Source: Kalmusia sp. IMI 367209 (lineage: Eukaryota; Ascomycota; Dothideomycetes; Pleosporales; Didymosphaeriaceae). Taken from it: a DNA stretch of 64,000 nt. Below the pieces are notes generated by a model. It saw only the letters and a program-made list of their open reading frames with translations, ran no database searches and had not been told where the DNA came from. Positions 20,660 to 50,718 of the stretch are shown here, in pieces (position 1 is the stretch's first letter; each line of letters begins with the position of its first letter). The stretch is from the NCBI GenBank assembly GCA_027946365.1, contig JAPEUQ010000005.1, positions 1-64,000 on the forward strand. Reading direction: 5' to 3'. Position numbers and translations under genes: made by a program.

Positions 20660-20827
20660 CTAAGAATAGTCTTTTATAAAGTCTTTATCTCTAGGGGTAG
20701 TCTACTAGAGTCTTTACCCCTAGGGGTAGTCTTCTATAGAGTCTTTACTTCTATGGTAGTCTGCCAGAGTCTTTACCCTTAGGGGTAGTCTTCTATAGAG
20801 TCTTTACTCCTACGGTAGTTTACTATA
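20660..20827. repeat. Minisatellite, left part (about 30 bp unit)
   Basis: The tandem unit of about 30 bp reads roughly GTCTACTAGAGTCTTTA followed by CCCCTAGGGGTA; the second half contains a perfect palindrome, CCCCTAGGGG. About five units are visible. The last one runs directly into TTTACTATA (20,819-20,827) and then into the hAT element. The array resumes with the same phrase on the other side of the element at 26,805, so this was originally one array. Confidence 0.85.
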
Positions 20828-21000
20828 GACTGGCAAATGGGTATAGGTTGGGTTGGGGTTGGGTCAGATTACATAAGACCCTAACCTAACCTATACCTAA
20901 ACCCATTAATTTAGCGCTAGTAATGGGTATAGGTTAGGGTTAGGTTACTAAAATCAGGGTTGGGTTAGGGTTAGGGTATATGGTTATGTCTAGGGTCTGA
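20828..21000. repeat. Left terminal and subterminal repeats of the hAT element
   Basis: The terminal bases GACTGGCAAATGGGTATAGG are followed by several copies of GGGTATAGGTTGGGTT- and GGTTAGGGTTAGG-like motifs on the plus strand, one cluster being inverted (TAACCTAACCTATACC at about 20,882-20,898). hAT transposases typically bind short subterminal repeats, so I interpret these as transposase binding sites. They resemble TTAGGG telomere repeats but are irregular and internal. Confidence 0.7.
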
Positions 21001-21196
21001 GTAATCATAATCAATTAATATATTTCTATTTACGTCTTAGTCGTTTTTTAATTATGATTATTGTTAAGGTGGATACTAGGTAGCTAGGTAATATCAACTA
21101 TCACGCATTTATTACAGTTAATTATAACAGTATAACTAGATTCATTGCTACTAGAGCTTCATGACCTATAACTACTACCCCTAACAGGTTTTCTCC

Positions 21197-21741
21197 TTAA
21201 TTTGATAGAACGTGCAGGATATGGTATCTTTGGTAGTAACGCTTTGCCAAATAAGAATCTTTGACCTGAATTGTAACCCTCTTTGCATGGATCGCATTCA
21301 TTTGGCAGTCTAGGAAAATAAGTATTTACTTAATAGTTAATATACTGATTAGAGGTACATACCTTCAAGATATCCAACCATGAACGCCTCAGTAGCTTCT
21401 TGAAGAGCACTTAGTGCAGAAGCCTGGATGCGCAAGTCCGGCTTGCAGGCATGGACTAGCTCGCGAACAAGACGTGAGAATGGAAGCTTGCGAATAAGTA
21501 GCTCTGCAGTTTTTTGATATTGCCTAATCTCTCTAAGCGCCACCGCTATATCCTATCAGCTTAAGAATGTGATTAGAAGCTGTGATAACTTACTGCCTGG
21601 CTTAAAGCGCCGCTTTTTCTTCGCATTGCCAGCGATCTTCTCGCGCGCAGCCTTACTAGCTAGATCTTTCTTGGGAGCTTTTCCGCCAGTTGCTAGCTTA
21701 TGGCGAGGCTTTTTAGTAGCAACTTGTTTAGATCTAGCCAT
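21197..21741 (-). CDS. Transposon-borne histone H3 variant (3 exons)
   Basis: Exons are 21741-21594, 21545-21363 and 21309-21197, with introns of 48 and 53 bp bounded by GTAAGT...TAG and GTATGT...TAG. They total 444 nt, encoding 147 residues and a stop without interruption. The first junction restores the canonical H3 stretch KPGTVALREIR. The histone fold follows: [20 protein letters not shown], then [19 protein letters not shown], and [13 protein letters not shown]. The tail begins ARSKQ and keeps GGKAP (Lys14 context), but the ARKS contexts of Lys9 and Lys27 are replaced (VATKKPRH and AAREKIAG). Canonical H3 is about 136 residues; here the tail is longer and the C-terminus has an extra basic/aromatic extension (KRYYQRYH). 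There is no loop-1 insertion, so it is not an obvious CenH3. It lies inside the hAT ends, divergent from the other two genes. Expression is unproven. Confidence 0.85.
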
Positions 21742-22254
21742 TATAGGTAGAGTTTGTAGAGCAGCGATAAAAGTTAGAGCAGTTAGTAGAAGTAGAAAGT
21801 AGAAGTAGAAAGTAGAAGTTTAGTCGCTGAGGCAATAGTTATATAGCGGTGAATATAGAAGCGAAAAAGTGAAGGTGAGAGGGAGAAAGTGAAGGTGAGA
21901 GGGAAATACAAAAGTTGGGCAAGCTAATTTACAGACTCTATCAGCGTATATCACAACAACTCCGTGATAAATTTCCGTGATAATTCACATAGGGAAAGAG
22001 CTTAAGATGCGCTTTCGATTGATACTCTTGCCGTAGTAATGCGACTTTTTTTGGTCGCTGTATGCGTATGCGCAATATACGATTATTATTATTTATTGTT
22101 GTTGTACCGCGTTATGCGTCGCGCACGGGCCACCAAATCTCGCTTAACTGCATCTATAGTCAGTCCCTGTCAACTTTCTTCTACCTTCTACTATCGCACT
22201 TTTGCAGGATCGCTCTATAAGTTACTACATACCTTTATTACAGTTTCTGCGCAA
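21742..22254. promoter_or_regulatory. Divergent intergenic region of the hAT element (candidate bidirectional promoter)
   Basis: About 500 bp separate the H3 start codon from the first coding trace of the acidic-protein gene on the other strand. The H3-proximal part is purine-rich on the plus strand, hence CT-rich on the H3 strand, as is common just upstream of fungal genes. It includes AAGTAGAA repetitions (21,788-21,825) and a 20 bp tandem duplication of AAAGTGAAGGTGAGAGGGA (about 21,866-21,904). A pair of TCCGTGATAA motifs lies at about 21,960-21,985. The promoter role is inferred from position. Confidence 0.45.
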
Positions 22255-23501
22255 TGAAGTCTCCGCCTATTAAGCAGAGCCTATTGAAGAGACCGATTAT
22301 CTAGATCGTCCTGAGGTTTACTGCCCAGTATTAGCGCGAGATACCAGCTGGATATGACTATGATGAGTGGGACAAGCTTACGAAGGTATTTATTCTAGTT
22401 TATTATCACAGTATAAACTAATTTATATAGGGTTTTACTTCTGAAGAGCAAGAAATCGATCACGTCCTCTCACTACGTGGACAGAGCGGTTCTCGAAAGG
22501 TCGTCCTACGAACTTATCAGTACCGTTTAAGGGCGTACTTAGTAATAGTGCTCGTGCTGTTCAAAGCAAAGAGATCGAGCTGCTCTACGTGATAGAGAGA
22601 CCAAGGCTATTGAGAGCGCTAATGCTGCTGATCGTTCTGCCAAAAGTATGCTTAAGAAGAGACTTGAAAAACAAGACACGTACACTTCTCTGTCTGAGGA
22701 TGCAAAGAAAACTACCTTAAGATGGAGCAGGAGAAGCTTTCAGATCAGCGCTTTCAGAATCAGAAGAGTAGTAAGTTATAACAGTAATTTATCATGTTTA
22801 TACTTACAAGGTGTAGGTGAATGGCTAGTAGCTCAGCTACAACGAGTCCACCTGAAATGGGAGAAGCTTAATCACGAAGTTTCCTAGGCAGCACCACAAA
22901 TCCCTAGAGAAGCTAGCCCAGGCTAGTAAAAGCTCTCCTGATAGACAACTCCAAGGCCGTGGAGAGTTGTGACTTATGGATCTGGCGGTGCCCTTGAGAA
23001 AATTATGCGAGACACCTATGAAGACGGTTTAGCAAAGCTCAAAAGCAATACATTCGAAAGTAAAGAGGCTAAAGCTGATTGGCAACAATTTATAGATGGC
23101 CTTACCAAAGAAGAGTTAGCTATGGTAACAGATAATGACTGGCAGTAAGTTTATTACATTCTTTTATCACGCTTATATACTAATTACGCTAGACGTTGTG
23201 AGCCTACGTCTGTCCTTGAGTGTATATCTGGGGAGAAGATATTACGCTTGAAAGCAATTTGCCATATGTTCTTGGCGAGAGTGATGAGTGTGAAGAAGAA
23301 GTTGACTATGACTCTGAGATTGACGCTGCGTATAATGAGGGGGATGATGAATATGAGACCTCTACTGATAAAGATGAGGATGAGGATAATGATGATAGTG
23401 AGGAGGAGTTTGAGGGCTTTACAGATTTTGAGGGTTTTCTGATGAAGACGATTGAGTGTCAGAGTCTACTACAGAATGAATACTCAAATATTAGGAGGTA
23501 G
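22255..23501 (+). pseudogene. Degraded hAT companion gene: charged helical protein with acidic C-terminus
   Basis: Coding traces hop between frames and are separated by plausible introns (GTATTT...TATAG at about 22,388-22,430; GTAAGT...ACAAG near 22,770-22,810; GTAAGT...CTAG at about 23,147-23,191). Readable pieces are YDYDEWDKLTK then GFTSEEQEIDHVLSLRGQ, a Lys/Arg/Glu-rich helical segment (RDRETKAIESANAADRSAK near 22,590-22,650), EKIMRDTYEDGLAKLKSN near 23,000-23,050, and an acidic run (ESDECEEEVDYDSEIDAAYN, then many Asp/Glu) at about 23,278-23,430. Two TAG stops and at least two frameshifts make it a pseudogene. I do not recognise the family. Acidic tails occur in histone chaperones and the H3 gene is adjacent, but a chaperone role is speculation. 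Confidence 0.5.
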
Positions 23502-23695
23502 ATCTTAGTTAAGTTTTGGCACTCTGCTTAACTGCAATTAGCTAGTAATAGTTAATACAGCTAATAATCACAGATTGTTTACCTGAATGTAAACATATCA
23601 TTTATGATTTTAATACTCACTTATTATGGAATGTACTTAGGAATGTAAACAGACGTACTAGAATATCATAAGCCCTGCACCCTATCTTATAGTCA

Positions 23696-26467
23696 TGAAT
23701 GGAAACATACGCATTAAACCCTCTCAGGCCACCAACATATCTCACAACTCCTTTAGTTTTATCACATCTTTTATCACACCACTATCCTTTATCCATTCTA
23801 CTTATGGCATCTGCTCTTCAATCCCCACAGTTTCCACCTATCCTTAATCAATTCCAATTAAGCGCCCCCCAAATTGTTAGAGGGGGAACTCAGAGCACCC
23901 TGATATTAATTAAATATCCATCTACGAATAACGAACACAATGAGGAACAAAGCGAAATTCGTTCTATATGGAATAAGTGGTGGAGTGAAACTACATGGGC
24001 TACGGATCCTTTAACTCATAACCCACGGTGGAATTCAACCTCTCGTTTTGGCCAAATCTGGACCCAATTTGAGAGGCCGCACAGTATACAGATGGTCGCC
24101 CATATGTATTCTGTCTTAATTGCGGATTTGCACTTCAACATCCAACAGTCAAAACAATTGAACTAAGCATCTTACGAATCACCTTAATACTCAATCTTGT
24201 AAGGAGACTCTAACTCCTATACATATTCAGTTACCTACACCTACGGCCCGGCCTCTACATTATCGAAATACTATAACACCAGTCCCATTGTATTCTCCTA
24301 TGACCTATGAGAATGAACTTGTACGGGTGGTAATAGACAACAACTGGTCTTTCCGAACAGTAGAGAGGCCATCCTTTCAACGCTTCCTTCAATACCTTAG
24401 CCCAATACTGTGATAACGAGCCGTTATAAATTACAGTCGATATTCCAGGATCAAGTTAAAACAGCTAAAGCTTTCTACTTTGTGATCTTTGTAAAACTAC
24501 GAAGATCTCAATTGCCTTAGATGCTTGGTCTGCAAGAAACCATCTTAGCTTTCTTGCAGTAAAGGGGTACTATATTAATAACAACTGGGAATTTTGTGAG
24601 AAGCTACTTGATTTTATCCCAATTCGTGGAAGCCATACAGGTACTTCTATGGCATTAGAAGTACTACAGGTTCTATCTGATACGAATACTAAGCAGCAAC
24701 TTCTAGCTATCACATGTATAATGCTAGTAATAATGGAACACTGGCTCGTACTATCCAAACTCAACTACAAGAAGAAGGTATTAATTGGGATTCTACTGAG
24801 AATACGGTTCCATGCCTCGCATCATATCATCAATCTGGTTGTCAGGATATCATTCAGCATCTTGAGCTAGCAGCTCCTAGTGAGCTAGAGGTTGAAGAGA
24901 ATCTACAACGGCGCCATAAATGAGATTCAATCAGAAATTTCAATACCGAATTCTCTTCGGAAGGTAAGCTAGCTTTTATCACCCAGGTATTTATTACAGA
25001 CTAAGTTATGGCTAGCTCCGGGCAATATGCAAAGCGATTGATCGATCCCCACAACGTTTTGAACGTTTTATTGCTACTCAGCAATCCCTACCACCAAAAG
25101 AACGTCTCTCTGTTATACGAGACGTGAGAACTCGTTGGAATTCGACGTTCGACATGTGTGACCGCGCAGTTAAGCTCCAGTCATATATCGATGAATGGCT
25201 TAAACAAGAAATCAACTTAAAACGACTCCTCATATTACTAGGCTACCAGTAATAATGATAACGCGGAGGTAGATTTCCGTGACCTTAAACGACTTCGACT
25301 ATCTCATACTGAGTGGCACCACCTTTGAGCTTATCACAGCTATGCTAAAGAGGTTTAAGGATGCAACCGACTCTTTGAGCCAGAACCAAAAACCACAGAT
25401 CCAATATATCTGGCTTATGTATAATCGACTCTTTGATTTTTTAGATAAGATGACGGAAGAGCTTAGTGAAGATTCAGAGAATAGAGATAACGCAGAGTGG
25501 CCAACAGTAGTAAGAGCTGCAGCTAGAAAAGGACGAGCTAAACTAAGCAAGTACTATTCGAAAACAGATGCAGAGCGGGGCTTTTATTCAACTGCGCAAC
25601 TATTCTCGATCCAACACAAAAAGCTTACAGCATATGAGGTACTATTATCACAGCTATTTATTACAGTAATCACTAATACTATCTATAGGATGATACTTGG
25701 GAAGCTCAGGACAAGCATAACTACCGCCAGCAATTTCTTCAATACCTTGATCGCTATGATAATAAAGAAACCAGAGATTTTACTCCAGTCTCAACTACCT
25801 ATCCTAGACGATCATCAGGTACAGAGTGGTTCCGGAAGCCCCATCCTTAAACCAATCACAGTCAAGTAGTATTTCAGTATCTAGCCAAAACCAGGGTACT
25901 AGCTTACAACATATGGAAGAAGAGCAAGGGGCAGCACGTCAGAAGGAGAAGCTTATCTAAGTACACCTCATATTATTATAGGTGAATCTTTTGATATTTT
26001 ACAGTGGTGGAAAGCAAATGAGGATACTTATCCTCATCTTGCCCAAATTGCAAAAGATATTCTACCTATTCAGATTACTGCAGTAAGTATTGAGCGTGTT
26101 TTTAATATTGCAAGAGATGTAATTGGAGATCGGAGACACCGTCTTTCAGCCCAGAGAATTCAGCAGATCATGTTTTTTAAGCATGCAATTTTCAAGAGAA
26201 GGAGCAATATATTATTACAGAGGATAGCCTAGCACCTTATGATGGAGTAAATGATCTTTTGAGCTTCCAACCTATTCAGATCATATAGATAGTATAGAGG
26301 AGGAAGAGATTACAGAGGAGGAAGAGGTTATAGATGAGGAAGATATTATAGAGCAGGAAGATATTGTACATATTCCTAGTGTAAATAGGGAGCAAATACT
26401 CCAACCACGTAAACGTCGAAGGTTCAACCTCCTTTACGTTACCGTGTTTAATAGCTGTTATAAATAA
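23696..26467 (+). pseudogene. hAT transposase, interrupted
   Basis: Traces in order: a BED-type zinc finger (FCLNCGFALQHPTVK at about 24,108-24,153, continuing in another frame as HLTNHLNTQSC), FRTVERPSFQRFLQYL (about 24,355-24,400), SIALDAW with the first catalytic Asp at 24,520-24,522, DFIPIRGSHTGTSMALEVL, and NASNNGTLAR at about 24,720. In the last block the expected Asp before Asn is a Tyr and a frameshift lies just upstream. Then come VRTRWNSTFDM (about 25,125-25,160), a helical insertion domain, and the C-terminal hAT dimerisation domain from WWKANEDTYPHLAQIAKDIL (26,005) to about 26,185. The protein ends with a Glu-rich stretch and PRKRRRF, a possible nuclear signal. Two likely introns (about 24,963-25,016 and 25,639-25,689) and three or more frameshifts are present. 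It is not functional as it stands. Confidence 0.88.
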
Positions 26468-26582
26468 ATAGTTCATATCTCTGACTTCCGCTAGTAGAGT
26501 GTTCTACAAAAGTTATAGACGTTTCCCTAAATATACTTTCTAGTAATAGAATTATATAAAATATCAATATAAATTACTTTTG

Positions 26583-26804
26583 TTATATAACCAACCCAGA
26601 TAGGAACTCCTAACCCAACCTATACCCAAGGTCCGCGACCCAACCTTTAAAACTCTGCATTTTATAGGGTCCGTGCGACCCAACCTAACTCTACACCTAA
26701 GTTCAAAGTGACCTAACCCCAACTCTATACCCAATGCTTAGTAATAGCTAACCCAACCCCAACTCTACCTATGGTTAACCTCAACCCATTTGCTGGGTCT
26801 AGTT
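26583..26804. repeat. Right subterminal and terminal repeats of the hAT element
   Basis: C/A-rich motifs such as CCTAACCCAACCTATACCCA and GACCCAACC occur five or six times and are the reverse complement of the G/T-rich motifs at the left end. The end itself reads CAACCCATTTGCTGGGTCTAG, mirroring the left terminal bases with a few mismatches. The duplicated target TTTACTATA follows at 26,805-26,813. Confidence 0.7.
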
Positions 26805-27590
26805 TTTACTATAAAGTCTTTATTTTTAAAGATAATCTTTATAGTCTTTTATCTTTAAAGATAGTCTTTTTATAAAGTCTTATTTTTTATAAGTCTACTA
26901 GAGTTCTTATTTTTAAAAATAGTCTACTAGAGTTTTTATTTTTAAGATAGCCCATTAGAGTCTTTGTTTTAGAGATAGTCTTTTACTAGGAGTCTTTTTA
27001 CTCCCTAGGGGTAGTCTTTATGAGTCTTTACTTCTATAGTAGTCTACTAGAGTCTTTACCCCTAGGGGTAGTCTGTTAGAGTCTTTACCCCTAGGGGTAG
27101 TCTATTAGAGTCTTTACCTCTAGAGGTAGTCTACTAGAGTCTTTATCTCTAGAGATAGTCTACTAGAGTCTTTACCTCTAGGGGTAGTCTTTCGCAGAGT
27201 CTTTACTCCTATGGTAGTCTACTATAAAGTCTTTACCCCTAGAGGTAGTCTTTTATAAAGTCTTTACCCCTAGGGGTAGTCTACTAGAATCTTTACCCCT
27301 AGGGGCAGTCTGCTAGAGTCTTTATTTTTAAGGATAGTCTACTAGAGTCTTTGCCCCTAGGGGCAGTCTTCTATAGAGTCTTTACTATAGTAGTCTGCTA
27401 GAGTCTTTACCCCTAGAGGTAGTCTACTAGAGTCTTTACCCCTAGAGATAGTCTACTAGAGTCTTTACCCTTAGGGATAGTCTACTAGAGTCTTTATCCT
27501 TAGGGGTAGTCTACTAAAGTCTTTACCCCTAAAGATAGTCTTTTATAGAGTCTTTACTCCTATAGATCGTCCTTACACCACTTTTTCACC
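26805..27590. repeat. Minisatellite, right part (about 30 bp unit, roughly 25 copies)
   Basis: This continues the array interrupted at 20,827. The first few units are degenerate and T-rich; from about 26,990 the units are regular, with GTCTACTAGAGTCTTTA and CCCCTAGGGGTA alternating at ~29-32 bp. Many variants differ by single transitions, and the palindromic core CCCCTAGGGG is often kept. It ends around 27,590 before the Fot1/pogo remnant. No coding frame is evident. Confidence 0.9.
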
Positions 27591-40661: not shown

Positions 40662-41624
40662 CTACCATGCCCAGGCATCAACCGTAAGGGGAACCAACGC
40701 TTTCTCACTCTCCAGCTCGGCCGCGTATTTGTCACCGCCTAGTCTCCACACCAACTTGTTCCACCAAAAATCTTTAGGGCCGAATCTTAACGGTGTAGTA
40801 AACTCCCAATAATCCGGATACCAGCCTGCAGACTCCCAGTCCAGGAACCCCGAGATGTGACCATCTAGAACCATAATATTGTGATGCTTAAGGTCGCCAT
40901 GAGTAAAGACGATTGGATGCCGCATTTTCCGCAGTCTTCCAGCAATTTCCACTGTCTCTTCGAACTTTTCCCGAGTTTCGAAACTGTGGCTGGAGATGGA
41001 ACTGAAGAGATGGTCGTTGAATTCCAATTCAGATTCACACGGTCCGACTGCATGACTGGGAATGCGCACGCTCCTGACTGCTGTACCTAACACTGAATAG
41101 ATCTGGTCTTTGCCCGATGGGTGCAACCAATTTCGCATGACTTGCAGGATGCACTGTAGTTCTGCGAAAATGCTCTCTCGCTCGTCATCGGTCATTCGCT
41201 CATACGAATCAGGGTCGCCCAGGTCTTTTCCCGGTATGCGGGTCATAAGTATTGACACCGGTGCATGAGGTGCGTCGGGATGCTCGCCGTATGAGACAAT
41301 CTTTGGCACTGGAAAGCCTGCAGACCGCGCTATCATGGTTGCCGCTACTTCTTCAAGCCTCGTGCCGTCTGACCATTTTAATACCAGTCCAAATGGAAGG
41401 GCCGCGATCTGATTGTCAAATGGAATGCCACACCAATGGCAGTAGTAGCTCGAGAAAGAACGAAGGTAATGATGCAATAATCCCAAAGCTCGACGAAAAT
41501 TTGGAGAGAAAAGGCGCGGTGTTGATGGAATTGATGACGCTAGATCAACAGACCCAAGGTCTTGATGAGGCCAAGTATAGGTAGGTAAGAGAACTTTAGG
41601 TATGAGGTGCCGAAGCCAATTCAT
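40662..41624 (-). CDS. APH-family (aminoglycoside phosphotransferase-like) kinase
   Basis: A single uninterrupted frame encodes a kinase-fold protein of the fungal APH/choline-kinase-like family. The catalytic loop reads FTHGDLKHHNIMV and the metal-binding motif GFLDWESAGWYPDYWE lies shortly after. The N-lobe has VLKWSDGTRLEEVAATMI, and RIPGKDLGD forms the linker region. I choose MNWLRHL at 41,624 as the start (320 residues); the frame is open to 41,780 (372 residues), but those extra residues look unlike the family. Substrates of fungal APH proteins are mostly unknown. This is one of the few intact genes next to several pseudogenes. Convergent or tail-side context gives no further hint. Confidence 0.85.
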   Translation of the reverse strand: MNWLRHLIPKVLLPTYTWPHQDLGSVDLASSIPSTPRLFSPNFRRALGLLHHYLRSFSSYYCHWCGIPFDNQIAALPFGLVLKWSDGTRLEEVAATMIARSAGFPVPKIVSYGEHPDAPHAPVSILMTRIPGKDLGDPDSYERMTDDERESIFAELQCILQVMRNWLHPSGKDQIYSVLGTAVRSVRIPSHAVGPCESELEFNDHLFSSISSHSFETREKFEETVEIAGRLRKMRHPIVFTHGDLKHHNIMVLDGHISGFLDWESAGWYPDYWEFTTPLRFGPKDFWWNKLVWRLGGDKYAAELESEKALVPLTVDAWAW

Positions 41625-41809
41625 TATTGTCGTATGTACGAAGGACAGGTAATATTTGTATTGAGGATGTGGCAGTTGTGTTGTCCGTTGAAGGGTTGCG
41701 TCCGAATATTTTGCCTGTGAAAACTGGATACCAGGCATAAGTGAGTGTGTTCCCACACCCCCTATGGCGCCGAAGTTCAATTCTAGAATGTCTTTTCGTT
41801 TCGTTCACG

Positions 41810-43551: not shown

Positions 43552-46500
43552 TTACGTACCACAGGTAGGAACATTCTTCTTCGTTGTGGTTGCCCAGCTT
43601 GTCACAGTATGTGCCTGCTTGACTGAAGTGGTCTTGTAGATTGTTGACTGGTGGGTCACGGTTGCTGTGGGTTCCAGTGATAGCGTGACGGTCTTCCATA
43701 CGATGGAGGTGCTTGCAGGGAGCGTCATCGTACTCTTGACTACGGTATCTTTGCTATATGTCTTTGTGATGGTCTGTGTAGGTAAAATCGTGGTGCTCTT
43801 GACGGACATAAGCTTGATGCTCGTCGTCGTTGGGCCTGCTACTGTGGTGGTGGACGCGGATGTTGACGTAGCTGTCACAGTCCGAAGCACAGTCGATGTA
43901 GACTTTTTGAGGGTCGTGATTTTGCCGGTCTCGCTTGTCTTGATAGTAGACACTGTCGTTGTCGATCCCTGTAGCGTCGTGGTTGTATACTTGATGCTCG
44001 TTGAGTAGCTAGTGCTAGAGACAGTGGCGGGTCTAAGAGAAACGGTATCAGTGGAGGTAAGAGTCGTATAAATGTCGGACGTGTAAGTTGTACCCGGAAT
44101 AGTTATGGCTGACGTCTTGATATTTGTAGTGAGTGGAGAAGTGATGGTAACAGTCACGGTCAAGACAGAGGCGGCCCGACCAACAAGCTGCTCAGTATTG
44201 CGCGGTCGGAGGGTATCTTCAGGTTCCCAGGACCGAACGCGAAGCTTGTTGGCAGTTGGTATACAAGTGATAGTTGTCGTGCTCTTCTTTGTTGTTGTTG
44301 CAGTCGTGTAGGCTGTCGAATAAACAGTCGTGGGCTTTGCCTCAACAGTAGTCTTTGCATCGCTTCCAAGAGTCTTCGTAGTCGTGCTCGTAGCTTTGAT
44401 TGCCTTTGACGTGGTTGTGTATAAGCTTGTGAAGGTGTTTCCTTTTGAGATGGTGATAGTATTCGGATTCGGTGTCAACGTTGTCAACGTTGTAGTTGTA
44501 GAAGTGATCTCCATAGTTGAAGCTTTTCCTGTAGTTGTCTTGACATTGTAGACCAGTGATTCTTGCGTGACGGTCGATGTCTTGACAGCCGGGTCTGGCG
44601 TCACGGTCGAGGCAACGTCCACATATGAGGTAGATGTTTGCGTAACAGTCTTATCAGGCTCGGTAACTGTGGAAGTTAGAATCGCCGTTGTCTTCTCCAC
44701 AGTAGTCCTCGTAGTCGGCAAGGGAGTGATCGTAGTCCCTACAACCAGAGTTGTAGTGTGAAGCTTTGTCAGCGTCATGTCGGGGATCGTGGTGGTTATA
44801 GAGAGCGTAGCCTTGATTGTGGAAATTTTGGTGGTGGTCACTGTGACTGTTGAGGTGGAAAGCGAAGTGGAGGTGGAGCTTGCTACCGATGTCGACAGAA
44901 CTGAGCTAGTTGATTGAGTTGGAATGATGACGGTTCCAGCCGAGAACGGAGCTCCATGCACCAACGTCATGTTGATCCACGAAATGGATGCAAAGAAGCT
45001 GGCCAACTCGAACTGCGCTGCAGAAGCAGCAGTAAGCTGGGTGGCAAATGAGGCGCGACCAGATGTTGACGAACCAGGGCCGTAGTTGGCCATCTCACCA
45101 AAGATAACGCCATCAGTTTGGGGAGCAGACTTTGACCATGGCTCCCACCCTACGGCTTCAATACAAGAGCCAAGATAGCTCTCAATGAAAGCAACGCGGG
45201 CGTAATTGTTCCAGGGCCGGCCAAGAGAGATCTCAGAATAAGGACCGCCGGTGACAGGGGCCACTGTGCACTGATCGAACACAAAGCCGGCGGCAGTGGT
45301 GTTCGTAGCCCGTTTGCTTGCTGTCAGTGAGACATCATCTGTGTTTGGTGATATGGTGGTATTTAGGAAATACCCCGCTCCGCTTCCCCAGATCATGTCT
45401 ATGCTGCCTTGAATTAAAGAATTCGAGGCAAAAAAATATCCATTGATGAGGAGGGCATCCTGGTTGCCATATACCTGGCATCCATAGAGCGAGGCATACT
45501 TGCTGCTCTTAACACCAAAACCAAGAGTAGCGAAGCTGCATTCATGTCAGCAATCTGAATAACTTGGGGTCAATATGAACTTACTTCTTTGCAGTGCCAT
45601 AGGTATTAGCAAAGTTGATGTTGATGGCCTGGAAGTAATTTCCAGTGGCATAGACAGTAGCGGAATCCGAGTTGGATGCATCTGCTTGGGTATCGATACC
45701 ATGAGCATAGGTGATTGTGACCTGATTTTGAGTGTAATCCTCAGTAGCAACAGAGTAGCCCACGAATATTGTCGTACCAGACTTATTCAGCACAAGTTTC
45801 TCCTCGTAAACACCAGGATAGATGAAGACAGTCGCAGTGATCTTACTGGATGCGGGTAGAGCGTCCACAGCTGATTGGATTGTGCCATAAGTTGTTTTTC
45901 CTTCAATGGCAGTCTTGGATACGATGTAAGCTCCGGCCGGTGGTGTAGTTCCGTCATACGTGGTAGTGGTATTTCCGGTTCCACCAGTGGACGCGGAAGT
46001 TGGCTGAGGAGTAGATATGTTGTCCCAGTAGGTCATGTCGATCCAGTCGATGCTGTCCATAACTGTCGCAAGAGGGTACGAATCGCTTGTAAGCAGCGTG
46101 CAGTTTTGCCAGGCTATTCTAGCCGCAGCGTTGTTCTCCCAATTACCGGGTCCAGAATTGTTGTACTCGGCGAACGTAATGTGGTCCGTGTTCGGGCTAG
46201 TGGTTCCCCAGACCTTCCAACCAGATGGGTGAATGATGTTAGTCAGATAGCTGTTCTTTACGACGACTGTTGCATAATTAGAGTATGGTCTTCCAAGGTA
46301 TACACTCTGAGTCAAGTCCACTGTCGCACTATCTGCTGCCTTGAAGAGACACTGATCAAAAATGTAGCCACCAATGGCTGCAGATGACGCACGGCTCTGG
46401 GCGGTGATAGCCGACTTCGCCCGCTGGGCACCAATTGTACATCCCTTGAAGTAGGCCTTAGAGTAGCCCCAGATAAAGTCAATAGCACCCTCTATGTATG

Positions 46501-49500
46501 AGGATTCGTAATATTGGTAGCCAGTAGTGGCTCCCGTAAGCAGAGTGTCTTGCCAGCCGATAAACGAGCATCCGTAGAAGCCAATATGATTGCCATAGAT
46601 ACTGCCAGCGAGAGTGACATAGCTTGCCCGAGCGCCATCCAGGTTATCAGAGTTGATCACATTGACGTTGTACATGCTGATCTTGGTGCTGCCGGTAGAG
46701 AATGTTGCAGTCTCGGCATCACTGTGACCGGTCGGCAGCGGGCTAACGGACAGGCCACGGGCATTGGTGATTGTGACCTTGTTGTTTGAATATGTCTGAC
46801 CCGGACTGCCTTCGGTGTAACCAATAATCATCACCGGACCAGCTCTTGAGACGGCTGGCACTTGTTCCTCATATGTTCCAGGATAAATAAAGATGATCTG
46901 TGTGCTGGAGTCGCGCGGTAGACTGGCCAAGGCAGAAGTTAAGTTACTATATGATCCGCTAACGGATCCACCTAGCGAAACAAGCACAGCTCCTGTGGGA
47001 GGGACAGTGCCACTGGTGGGATGCGCCCACGTAGCCGCTGCAGAGGAAGACGTGGTTGGGCTAGTTGTTTGGCTTGGGGCCACGCCTAGGGTGAAGCTTG
47101 GTTTGTAATTGTAAGCCGTCATATCGATCCAATCGGTAGTATCCAAGAATGAGGACAGCATATACGCAGATGCCTCTGACGAGGTAAGATTTGTTGCATA
47201 TGAGACACGAGAAGTGCTCCAATTTCCTGGGCCGCTGTTGTTGTATTCGCCAAACAAAACATTCGAAGTTCGAGGATCACTGGTGGCCCAACCATGCCAA
47301 CCTTCCGGAGCGATATGTCGATCGAGATACGAATTCATGTACACCACAAGGGCATACTGAGACCAAGGACGTCCGAGGTACGTTGTTCCAGTGGATGTAC
47401 CGTAGGAGCTGGTGTATGTGACGTAGCAGGAGTCAAAAACGTAGCCACCTGCCCAGCTAGCAGTGGGGCGATTCTGAGCTGTGATGTAGGCACCAGCAGT
47501 GTTCGAAGCAATGTAGCATTGATGGAAGTAGGCTTTCGAGTAGCCCCATATGAAATCCACACTACCCTCAATGTAGCAATTGCTGAACACTTGAACACCT
47601 TGGTTGGCTAGTAGAGTGTCCTGAAAACCGATAAATGAGCATCCATAGGCAGCCATATTTTTGCCATAGAAGTCAGCTGCTAGAGCGGCCGAATTTGGGG
47701 TTTGAGGGTAGATGTTGACGAAATCAATATTGTAAAGAGCCAAACCAGTTCCGTCCGTTTTCTTGGAATTTACCACAGGGGTCAGCTCGTTCTGATTGGC
47801 GTTCGTGGAAACCCCATAATTGAATTGTATTCTCACCCCATTCTGGGAGTAGTCATTAGGGTAATCAGTCTCGCCCCGCAGTGTCACCTTGCCGGTGCGG
47901 TTAACCCAAATTTGCTCAGTGTATGTTCCAGCAAGGATGTAGATCGTGTAAGCTTTTCCATCATTGGGAAGAGCAGCCACAGCAGACATAACGGTGCCAT
48001 ATTGGCCAGCTGTTGGTGTAGGCGCAACCGTGTATCCTGTTGATACCGAGCTTGTAGTCGTGGAGGCAACAGATGAAGTTGAAGTACTGGTAGCAATCAT
48101 GGATGAGCTTGAGGCAGTCGCGGCGATGCTTGAATACACAGAATCTGGGAAACCGGAAGCCGGGGAAATGGCATTGTTATCGAGCCAGCTAACGTCTCCA
48201 AGCACATCAACAGCGGAGTAAGCCGATGAGTCAGACAGGATCTGAACGCTGGAAATTCGAGATGTGGTGGATGATCCGGGACCAGTGTTATTTGATTCCA
48301 CGAAGACTGGCGATGAGCTCGCCGACGAAATTTTCCATCCAATAGGATTAATATGGTTGTCAAGGTACGAGTTGATGTAAGCCACGTGTGGCATAGTTGA
48401 GTAGTCTCTTCCCAGATAAGTGGCACCTATCGGCACTGAAGAGCTGCCAGGGACTATGGCGCAGTGATCAAATACAATGATCGAGGTTCCTACGGACGTC
48501 TGATAACTTTGAGCCGCAATAGTCTGTCCAGTACTGGTACTCGTCTCAACGATCTCAGAATTGTAGATGTAAGCAGCTCCTTGGCCCCACACGAAGTCTG
48601 TCGTACCCTCAATATGACAGTTGGAGAAATAGAACGCTCCATAGTTCACGAGTAAGCTTCCTTGTGACGACTTGATGTTGCAAGAATAGAATGCCGCCCT
48701 CTTTGTCTTGATCGAAACAGCGACTGCCTGATAATTCGTTGTTGGCGTGTAATTGTTCTCGAAGTTGATGTTGTAGAAGGTGAGCTGGTTCGTGTAGTAC
48801 TGGGTAGATTGGAAAGCTCCAGTGCCTGCAGCAGCTCCCGCGCTCGACAGAACACCGCCATTAGTCCTAATAGTAACACTGTTTCCCGATCGAGACAGAG
48901 GGTTGGCAGCCTCTCCGCGGAAGGTCGTTGCGCCAGTTCTACCATTGGGAAACACCACCTGCTCGTTATACACGCCGGCTAAGATGTAGATGGTCTGCAC
49001 AGTAGCATCAAGAGGTAAGCTGGAAATTGCAGCAGAGATACTTGTGTAGTTGGCACAAGATCCAGATGGTCCTACAGTACGGGCAGTACTAGGCACCGAG
49101 GATGGCAGAACGCAACTAGTGGCGCTCGCAGAAGCGCTGGAAGACGCGACGTTCGTTGGAGAGGATGATGATGTCAGGGTGGAGGTGAAGCCAGTAGACG
49201 AGCTTGATAAAGCCGAAGTCATTAATGTTGTTGCTGAAGCTGAACTTGAACTCTGGATAGAGCTCGAACCTGAAATAAGGCTGGAGCTTGGGGTCGCACT
49301 CAAGGCCGCGCTGGAACTGGAGCCTGTTGATGAACTGTATGATGCTGCGAAAGTCTGACTTGAGCTCGAAGTAGCACTAGATTCACCGGATTGCCTTTCC
49401 TGGGCTGCGTCGCTAGCCTGAATGGCGCTCAAGACCTTGGAGTCGACCCATGAGAGGCTAGTGGTGGCCACTGTGGGATATGCGTTGGCGAAGAGACTTG

Positions 49501-50718
49501 CGAGATTGAAAGGCGCAAGTTGGGCCGCATCTGTGACATAAAAGTAATTGGCTGTATATGGAGTCCGGGAAGCCCGATTGTTCAGGTAGCTTCCCGCACC
49601 CGTAGTCAGATACTCGTAGTATGCGTTCCCAGAAGCCTGAGTGCTTGTGTCGACGTGGACACCACTCGGAGCAATCAAACTAGCCATGGCCGTGTTGCGA
49701 TACACTACAACGGATCCCAGCCCGTTGGCAGAGGCTAGATAGACATAGTTATTTGTTGTTCCTGCCTTCTGGATGACCGAGCATGAGTCGAACACTACGG
49801 TGGAATTGTATTGGATGCCTCCAGAAACTCCACCCTTGTTGTATGTGAGAAGAGCGTTCTTGGCCGTCGCGGTGATCGTCGAGCCGTAGATGTAGAGTGA
49901 GGGATATGAGTAGATAACTTTGTCCGCAGCCTCAATGTAGGAATTGGCGATGAGGGCTGACGCATAGTTGGTGCTAAAGCCAGTAGGCCCCGCGGCAACG
50001 AATTGGCAGGAGTAGAATGCATTCTGGGATCCGCGAAGATACATGAATCCTGCTGTAGAAGCGGAGTTTGTGTTAAAGAAATTGATGTTCTTCCAGGAAA
50101 TTCCTTTAGTCGCAACCGAGTAGGTTACTGGGGCTGCGCTATTCGAGATAGTCACTAGGTTCGAGGAGTAGTCGTCAGCATCGGTTGATTCTCCCACGAT
50201 GGTGACTGCCGCAGTAGCTTGGATCACAACGCTCTCGGTATATGTCCCAGCTTTGACCGTCACAGTAGGAACTCCTTGACTCTGCGCATACAGAATAGCA
50301 GGGCCAACGGCAGTAAACTGGCCAGTTCCATCAGGTGCCACTGTCACGGCAGATAAGGCAGCTATTTGGTCTTAATTCAACAAACTCTGCAATGACGGAT
50401 CTGAGCTACCATACCAGTAGATGTGGAACTCGTTGAGGATAGAGTCGTCGAGGATAGGGTATCCGTGGTGACTACAATACTAGATGCTGTGGCACTGGTT
50501 GCGGGCGCAATGTCGGAGACTGAATTGGCACTCGAAGCTACAGTAGCACCGATGTCAGCATATTTGAGTCAAGTCACAAGTCGGGAAAGAGGAAGAGGGG
50601 CCTGCTCACAGCAAGCGTTGCCAGACAATGAGGAGACAACCGAGGCGGTCGTACCTTGTTCTGCGATGCTCTGCCCAGCAAGGAGCAGTAGGAGAAGAGA
50701 TGAAAGCATCTTGGTCAT
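43552..50718 (-). CDS. Secreted pectin methylesterase with five tandem domains and a Ser/Thr-rich tail
   Basis: Exons 50718-50610, 50537-50415, 50370-45585 and 45535-43552 have GT-AG introns of 72, 44 and 49 bp and total 7,002 nt (2,333 residues), an exact multiple of three. A signal peptide (MTKMLSSLLLLLLLAGQSIA) opens the protein. Five CE8-type beta-helix domains follow: about residues 88-395, 507-808, 858-1161, 1206-1523 and 1558-1861. Domains 3, 4 and 5 keep the active-site blocks (GFQDTLL, GWQDTLL and GNQDALL; VDFIWG, IDFIWG and IDMIWG; LGRPW or LGRPY). Domain 2 has TDFVWG and LGRDYS but QGSLL instead of QDTLL. Domain 1 has lost all three. Linkers 1-2 and 2-3 are Ser-rich. The ~450-residue tail is Thr/Ser/Val repeats, probably O-glycosylated. 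The enzyme would demethylate pectin in plant walls. Typical fungal enzymes have about 320-340 residues. Confidence 0.9.

What the first reader, a model, noticed from the sequence alone, without database searches (positions are those of the whole stretch)
21197..21741. A DNA transposon that carries its own histone H3 gene
Seen directly: an uninterrupted three-exon frame encoding a 147-residue H3-fold protein lies inside the ends of a hAT element, 370 bp from its left terminus and divergent from the transposase. The introns show it is not a processed retrocopy. The target-site duplication and inverted subterminal repeats place it within the mobile unit. hAT elements are known for transposase, and I recall no established description of one with a core histone as cargo. 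Inference: the H3 variant could be deposited on the element or host DNA to escape silencing, mark the element for the transposase, or alter replication timing.
Basis: partly seen in the sequence, partly recalled or inferred. Interest (0 to 1): 0.95.

Follow-up and report, generated by a model that had tools for sequence, protein, structure and literature searches.

The report
Fungal jumping gene with own histone
This stretch is a copy of a mobile DNA element (a hAT transposon) of a filamentous fungus that carries its own unusual histone H3 gene; elements of this kind were reported in a wheat pathogen in 2013, but the histone looks like an old, specialised part of the element rather than a recently captured host gene.

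Summary
Window 21741-21197 (-) encodes an uninterrupted 147-aa, three-exon H3-like protein (H3L) inside a 5,976-bp hAT transposon (20826-26801). In the host assembly all 27 long DNA matches to the element (23 near full length, 4 partial) span H3L, and 15 of the 23 show exact 8-bp target duplications, so H3L moves with the element. Most later damage is C-to-T/G-to-A (RIP), so the burst is recent.

The novelty claim fails. A ~5.6-kb hAT with H3L, a central gene and transposase was described in Pyrenophora tritici-repentis (Manning 2013), and hATs with captured H3 in Mycosphaerellaceae (Dhillon 2019). This element is of the Pyrenophora kind: its central protein has homologues in Pyrenophora, Bipolaris, Alternaria, Boeremia and Parastagonospora.

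Added here: H3L and four relatives form one clade (100/99) far from canonical H3; its introns differ from the host H3 gene's; all five share replacements at H3-H3 contact residues 110 and 130; the central protein has an AT-hook-like motif, a very acidic tail and C-terminal FEGF motifs like those that dock on LEDGF-type domains. Best inference: a long-resident, element-specific H3 with a companion chromatin protein. Function is untested.

The parts
20826..26801 (+). hAT element, three genes, 5,976 bp
   Evidence: family ends and TSDs; 23 near-full and 4 partial copies in the host assembly
20826..20841 (+). left terminal inverted repeat TAGACTGGCAAATGGG
26785..26801 (-). right terminal inverted repeat (divergent in this copy; CCCATTTGCCAGTCTA in most other copies)
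20818..20825 (.). left target-site duplication GTTTACTA
26802..26811 (.). right target-site duplication GTTTTTACTA, imperfect
20836..20990 (.). left subterminal G-rich repeats (GGTATAGGTTRGGG-like, with TTAGGGTTAGGG)
   Evidence: inverted pairs I1, I2, I5, I12
26601..26793 (.). right subterminal repeats, inverted relative to the left ones
21594..21741 (-). H3L exon 1: variant tail with a 6-aa insertion after K9
21363..21545 (-). H3L exon 2
21197..21309 (-). H3L exon 3, with the C107/N110/S124/Y130/Y131 clade signature (canonical numbering)
22254..23455 (+). central gene, 4 exons, frame broken in this copy; 359-aa protein read from copies L002/L003; AT-hook-like motif, acidic tail, two FEGF motifs
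23804..26451 (+). hAT transposase gene (limits approximate), frame broken in this copy; Dimer_Tnp_hAT near its C-terminal end
20667..20825 (.). 29-31-bp tandem array left of the element (insertion site)
26815..27562 (.). similar 28-29-bp tandem arrays right of the element (three adjoining rows)

Best explanation
Shown: this is one of at least 27 copies of a recently active hAT DNA transposon with three genes (H3-like histone, central chromatin-type protein, transposase), of the kind first described in Pyrenophora tritici-repentis. H3L is not a recently captured host gene but belongs to a separate, diverged H3 clade. Inferred: H3L is a working part of the element. It keeps the histone fold (so it can pair with host H4) but has replaced residues at the H3-H3 contact, so it would preferentially pair with itself and form its own nucleosomes. 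The central protein, with an AT-hook-like motif, a strongly acidic tail and C-terminal FEGF motifs, would act as its carrier and tether to DNA and to host transcription-elongation factors. The pair would place H3L nucleosomes on element (or donor/target) chromatin to keep it transcribable and accessible to the transposase. The identity part is near certain (about 0.95); the functional part is about 0.35.
For: Mobile unit with H3L in 27 of 27 long matches and exact 8-bp TSDs in 15 of 23. Central protein hits 16 proteins; 13 bear a species name, all in Pleosporales (lineages); P0136 is a P. tritici-repentis fusion of central protein and Dimer_Tnp_hAT, matching the short chimeric form in Manning 2013. 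H3L clade of 5 rows supported 100/99, stem 0.66 changes per site. H3L introns at codons 50 and 111, host H3 introns at codons 9 and 121. N at H3 position 110 in the 4 H3L relatives and in 0 of 195 other C-terminal signature matches in the 168 H3-type proteins held, which are top-ranked hits only; residues 109, 110, 126 and 130 form a hydrophobic cluster of the H3-H3 interface (PMC5626479). Central protein: [RK]GRP in 13 of 16 (13 of the 14 that cover it), FxGF in 9 of 16 (9 of the 12 that reach that part), last 70 aa of ours with 35 D/E and 1 K/R. FxGF (DFxGFDE in JIL-1) is the motif of LEDGF/IBD-domain ligands (PMC6877644).
Against: No transcript, protein or binding data. Whether the four H3L relatives lie in hAT elements could not be checked, and the P. 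tritici-repentis H3L sequence was not obtained. Three of the five H3L rows are flagged as long branches and the bootstrap had not settled. The burst here is too recent for a dN/dS test inside this genome. H3L does not save copies from RIP: 15 of 27 are heavily RIPped. Loss of the ARKS contexts is peculiar to this H3L: an RK context is kept at K27 in 4 of 4 relatives and at K9 in 2 of the 3 that cover it. 21 of 23 copies have at least one flank under 40% GC, which does not look like targeting of active genes, though retention could explain it. The central-protein model is only moderate (pLDDT 68.5) and matched no known fold. The FxGF examples that I read are animal proteins; a fungal partner is assumed.
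Confidence: 0.55

Rival explanations
1. H3L is a passenger: a captured H3 gene amplified by the hAT and drifting without function (the transduplication reading).
For: Published view for P. tritici-repentis ('may have undergone drift', PMC3538342); capture and inactivation is the published account for Mycosphaerellaceae (PMC6710886). No expression data here. Only 1 of 12 young copies has all three H3L exon peptides exact.
Against: Diverged H3L clade with open frames and 5 of 5 shared non-canonical residues; introns unlike those of the host H3 gene; all 27 long copies span the gene; the same three-gene plan in P. tritici-repentis.
Confidence: 0.22
2. H3L acts on the whole host genome: a divergent H3 incorporated broadly that loosens heterochromatin and favours transposition of all elements.
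For: In this H3L the ARKS contexts at K9 and K27 are replaced while the K4 context is nearly kept. Manning 2013 asked whether altered chromatin could be partly responsible for TE amplification.
Against: An RK context is kept at K27 in 4 of 4 relatives and at K9 in 2 of 3. The genome still shows strong RIP of this element and the window an AT-rich block.
Confidence: 0.13
3. H3L is a structural cofactor of the transposition complex (DNA wrapping or synapsis of the G-rich subterminal repeats) rather than a nucleosome component.
For: H3L lies next to long inverted subterminal repeats and has a basic tail.
Against: The histone fold sequence is well conserved along its length, which points to nucleosomes.
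Confidence: 0.07
4. Recent local insertion or capture of the host's own H3 gene.
For: None found beyond the H3 fold.
Against: Separate clade; 58% nucleotide identity in aligned codons and different introns; many insertions carry it.
Confidence: 0.02

Closest known systems
H3L-carrying hAT element of Pyrenophora tritici-repentis (Manning et al. 2013, PMC3538342; passages and part 1 of 2 of section 20 read)
   Same: hAT with TIRs; H3-like gene, central gene and transposase in one element; insertion in the H3L tail; multi-copy and recently expanded; homologous central protein; central/transposase chimera
   Different: About 6.0 kb instead of 5.6 kb; central protein only about 50% identical; here heavily RIPped as well as un-RIPped copies; host unnamed. 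H3L and TIR sequences of P. tritici-repentis could not be compared.
H3-carrying hAT of Pseudocercospora fijiensis and relatives (Dhillon et al. 2019, PMC6710886; abstract, Results and part 1 of the Discussion read)
   Same: hAT, 8-bp TSD, H3-like cargo, RIP
   Different: About 9.5 kb, H3-like copies intronless and all inactivated, no Dimer_Tnp_hAT found, and by that paper no similarity to the P. tritici-repentis element
Canonical histone H3 of the host (L031)
   Same: H3 fold, 63% identity over 134 aligned residues
   Different: Different introns, a divergent H4 gene upstream, different residues at 107, 110, 124, 130 and 131, no tail insertion
LEDGF/IBD (TFIIS-N) ligands such as JIL-1 and IWS1 (PMC6877644, PMC13175633, PMC12278311; passages read)
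   Same: Short acidic D/E-F-x-G-F motif in a tail predicted or expected to be disordered
   Different: No shared domain; binding untested; the examples in those passages are animal proteins

Membership tests
hAT superfamily | 8-bp target-site duplication | tested here: met
   15 of 23 near-full copies exact; window copy imperfect
hAT superfamily | short terminal inverted repeats | tested here: met
   TAGACTGGCAAATGGG at both ends in most copies
hAT superfamily | transposase with hAT dimerisation region | tested here: met
   PF05699 E = 3.6e-18; hAT-like RNase-H PF14372 only below its cut-off
hAT superfamily | catalytic triad and transposition activity | not tested
   not examined; many insertions with TSDs imply past activity
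P. tritici-repentis H3L-hAT family | H3L + central gene + hAT transposase between TIRs | tested here: met
P. tritici-repentis H3L-hAT family | homologous central protein | tested here: met
   P0123 50% identity over 89% of the query, E = 1.4e-92
P. tritici-repentis H3L-hAT family | homologous transposase | tested here: met
   chimera P0136 matches our transposase piece at 50% over 338 columns
P. tritici-repentis H3L-hAT family | H3L closest to that of P. tritici-repentis | not testable with these tools
   no P. tritici-repentis H3L among the 120 best listed of 7,994 and 7,992 scored
Mycosphaerellaceae H3-hAT | intronless H3 copy, about 9.5-kb element | tested here: not met
   two introns, about 6.0 kb
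Canonical H3 | groups with canonical H3 rows | tested here: not met
   separate clade 100/99
CENP-A | is the host centromeric H3 | tested here: not met
   a separate CENP-A-like gene exists (L032); its PDB search gives H3.3 first (140.6 bits) and fission-yeast Cnp1 at 135.3 bits, so the label is mine; the H3L clade excludes it
Histone chaperone (central protein) | acidic tail | tested here: met
   35 D/E and 1 K/R in the last 70 aa
Histone chaperone (central protein) | histone binding or known chaperone fold | tested here: inconclusive
   no fold match at E <= 0.001; binding not testable

The most novel reading that the evidence does not exclude
The element runs a private nucleosome system: a self-pairing H3 variant plus its own dedicated chaperone/tether that couples deposition to host transcription elongation, so that the transposon builds and inherits its own chromatin state apart from the host's. 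It would be an old, selectable trait of a hAT lineage across Pleosporales, not gene capture.
Probability: 0.2. Interest if true: 0.88.

Novelty: new member of a known kind. Interest (0 to 1): 0.47.

Why it matters
If H3L is a kept, specialised part of the element, then a DNA transposon encodes its own core-histone variant and a partner chromatin protein: a selfish element supplying the substance of its own chromatin. It turns the published picture (captured housekeeping gene, drift) into a testable one: two conserved changes at the H3-H3 contact predict homotypic H3L nucleosomes, and the acidic FEGF tail predicts a TFIIS-N/LEDGF-type partner.

Tried and rejected
Recent capture of host H3: rejected by tree and introns. 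Clade-wide loss of ARKS at K9/K27 as the reason for H3L: dropped, since the relatives mostly keep RK contexts. Within-genome dN/dS: not informative, because in 14 of 15 RIPped copies all non-RIP differences sum to 22 or fewer (L019 is the exception with 152). Subtelomeric targeting: 10 of 23 near-full copies lie within 21 kb of a contig end (about 0.7 expected by my arithmetic), but contigs may simply break in repeats and no array of four TTAGGG units was found, so left open. H3L relatives in viral contigs: none confirmed. A second search with an H3L profile listed no H3L member beyond the four already known among its 120 best of 7,992 scored. Fold of the central protein: no match. Host species: not identified. 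Papers opened for passages that gave nothing used as evidence: PMC7835958, PMC9167812, PMC4112212, PMC10680173.

Full report
What is there. On the minus strand of the window, exons 21741-21594, 21545-21363 and 21309-21197 join through GT-AG introns into a 147-residue protein with a core-histone domain (PF00125, E = 2.1e-32). It is 63% identical to the host's canonical H3 over 134 aligned residues, with a 6-residue insertion after K9. The host H3 lies elsewhere (L031), with a divergent H4 gene upstream. A second H3-type gene (L032) I call CENP-A-like; in the PDB its best matches are H3.3 (140.6 bits) and, a little lower, fission-yeast Cnp1 (135.3 bits).

The mobile unit. A DNA search of the window's own assembly (42.8 Mb, 30 contigs, unnamed) gave 35 matches: 27 long ones (23 near full length, 4 partial) and 8 short ones within the subterminal repeats; the tool calls its counts lower bounds. 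All 27 long ones span the H3L region. Most begin and end with TAGACTGGCAAATGGG and its inverse, and 15 of the 23 near-full copies have exact 8-bp target duplications (14 by script; L017 read by eye). The window copy has an imperfect duplication and lies between tandem arrays of a 28-31-bp unit. Protein searches showed further, older places. I fetched the left part of seven: five carry H3L (L045-L048, L051), two (L049, L050) break off before reaching it. The remaining fragments were not examined for H3L. I saw no intact element without H3L, but did not survey every fragment. Two partial copies, L026 and probably L027, look like old copies split by younger copies of the same element.

Age and decay. 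The window copy and 11 others (95.7-98.3% identical to it) form the young set; two of these, L011 and L012, are lightly RIPped (136 and 148 substitutions against the majority). Against the majority of the young set the 15 other copies differ almost only by C-to-T/G-to-A, with CpA the commonest context in each, as expected of RIP: for example L013 has 557 such changes against 4 others; the exception is L019 with 152 others. So nearly all copies stem from one recent burst. Deleted bases in the young copies are enriched about threefold in homopolymers (159 of 354 against 892 of 5,974), while the single-copy host H3 reads cleanly; I take many as assembly errors, but 184 of the 354 are shared by 2 to 5 copies, so this is not proven.

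The other genes. The transposase has a hAT dimerisation region. Between H3L and transposase lies a four-exon gene for a 359-aa protein without a significant Pfam family. Its 16 database hits at E <= 0.001 include 13 with a species name: Pyrenophora seminiperda, P. tritici-repentis, P. teres, Bipolaris sorokiniana, Alternaria panax, Boeremia exigua and Parastagonospora nodorum, all genera of Pleosporales. The cluster headed by P0123 (P. tritici-repentis) has 29 members. One hit, P0136, fuses this protein to a hAT dimerisation domain. The family shares an AT-hook-like core ([RK]GRP in 13 of 16; 13 of the 14 that cover it), a very acidic C-terminal part, and FEGF near the C-terminus (9 of 16; 9 of the 12 that reach that part). 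In 20,000 shuffles of our last 70 residues FxGF appears in about 1%. An AlphaFold2 model of P0123 is all-helical, mean pLDDT 68.5, without a PDB match at E <= 0.001. The name AT-hook is recalled, not from a call.

H3L as a clade. Two searches, each listing its best 120 of about 8,000 scored candidates, showed four clear relatives: P0045 (Paraphoma chrysanthemicola, partial; Pleosporales), P0053 (18 contigs, longest 1,999 bases), P0055 and P0059. With ours they form one clade, support 100/99, stem 0.66 changes per site, in a 33-row tree. The rows were chosen by me, the bootstrap had not settled, and three of the five rows are flagged as long. All five have C107, N110, S124, Y130 and Y131 in canonical numbering. 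Among the 168 H3-type proteins held, N110 occurs only in the four relatives, against 195 other matches of the signature. Residues 109, 110, 126 and 130 are those used to re-engineer H3-H3 pairing (PMC5626479, passages). H3L introns interrupt codons 50 and 111; those of the host H3 interrupt codons 9 and 121. The ARKS contexts of K9 and K27 are changed in our H3L, but relatives keep an RK context at K27 (4 of 4) and at K9 (2 of the 3 that cover it).

What is in print. Searches of the held library led to Manning 2013 (PMC3538342; passages and part 1 of section 20 read) and Dhillon 2019 (PMC6710886; abstract, Results and part 1 of the Discussion read). The first describes a ~5.6-kb hAT with H3L, central ORF and transposase, plus a chimeric 2.3-kb form, in P. 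tritici-repentis, and suggests drift; ESTs of H3L exist there. The second describes ~9.5-kb hATs with RIPped, intronless H3 in Mycosphaerellaceae. In these search listings and the parts read I saw no report of the H3L clade, its H3-H3 contact changes, or the motifs of the central protein; the figures and supplements of Manning 2013 were not seen and papers outside that library were not searched.

How it may work. Shown: anatomy, mobility, kinship. Inferred: H3L pairs with H4 and with itself, and the central protein, by its acidic tail and FEGF motif, carries or tethers it. FxGF motifs dock on LEDGF/IBD domains (PMC6877644, passages), and TND-interacting motifs are known from IWS1 and others (PMC13175633, PMC12278311; passages). 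A TFIIS-N protein is a plausible host partner in fungi, but none was tested. Against a strong anti-silencing role stand the 15 heavily RIPped copies; against targeting of active genes stand AT-rich flanks (at least one flank under 40% GC in 21 of 23 copies).

Verdict. A real and well-defined element of a kind known since 2013, with evidence that its histone is diverged and specialised rather than a fresh or drifting capture.

Noticed in passing
20940-20985: The left subterminal repeat contains TTAGGGTTAGGG, the usual fungal telomere unit (recalled), and 10 of 23 near-full copies lie within 21 kb of a contig end; whether this is targeting or assembly breakage is open.
   Followed up: partly
20800-20825 and L010: The copy near the other end of the same contig (L010) shares the left flank of the window copy, suggesting a subtelomere-like duplication.
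   Followed up: no
20667-20825, 26815-27562: 28-31-bp tandem arrays (unit like TTTACCCCTAGGGGTAGTCTACTAGAGTC) on both sides of the element.
   Followed up: partly
L026 with L014; L027 with L011: Old RIPped copies appear to be split by younger insertions of the same element: pieces end and resume at nearly the same element position.
   Followed up: partly
43552-50347: Two long minus-strand frames with pectinesterase domains in the GC-normal part of the window.
   Followed up: no
40662-41780: Frame with an APH phosphotransferase domain, E = 2.6e-17.
   Followed up: no
1-31000: AT-rich, low-GC block (0.18-0.43 per kb) ending sharply at about 31,000, as in RIP-made AT isochores.
   Followed up: no
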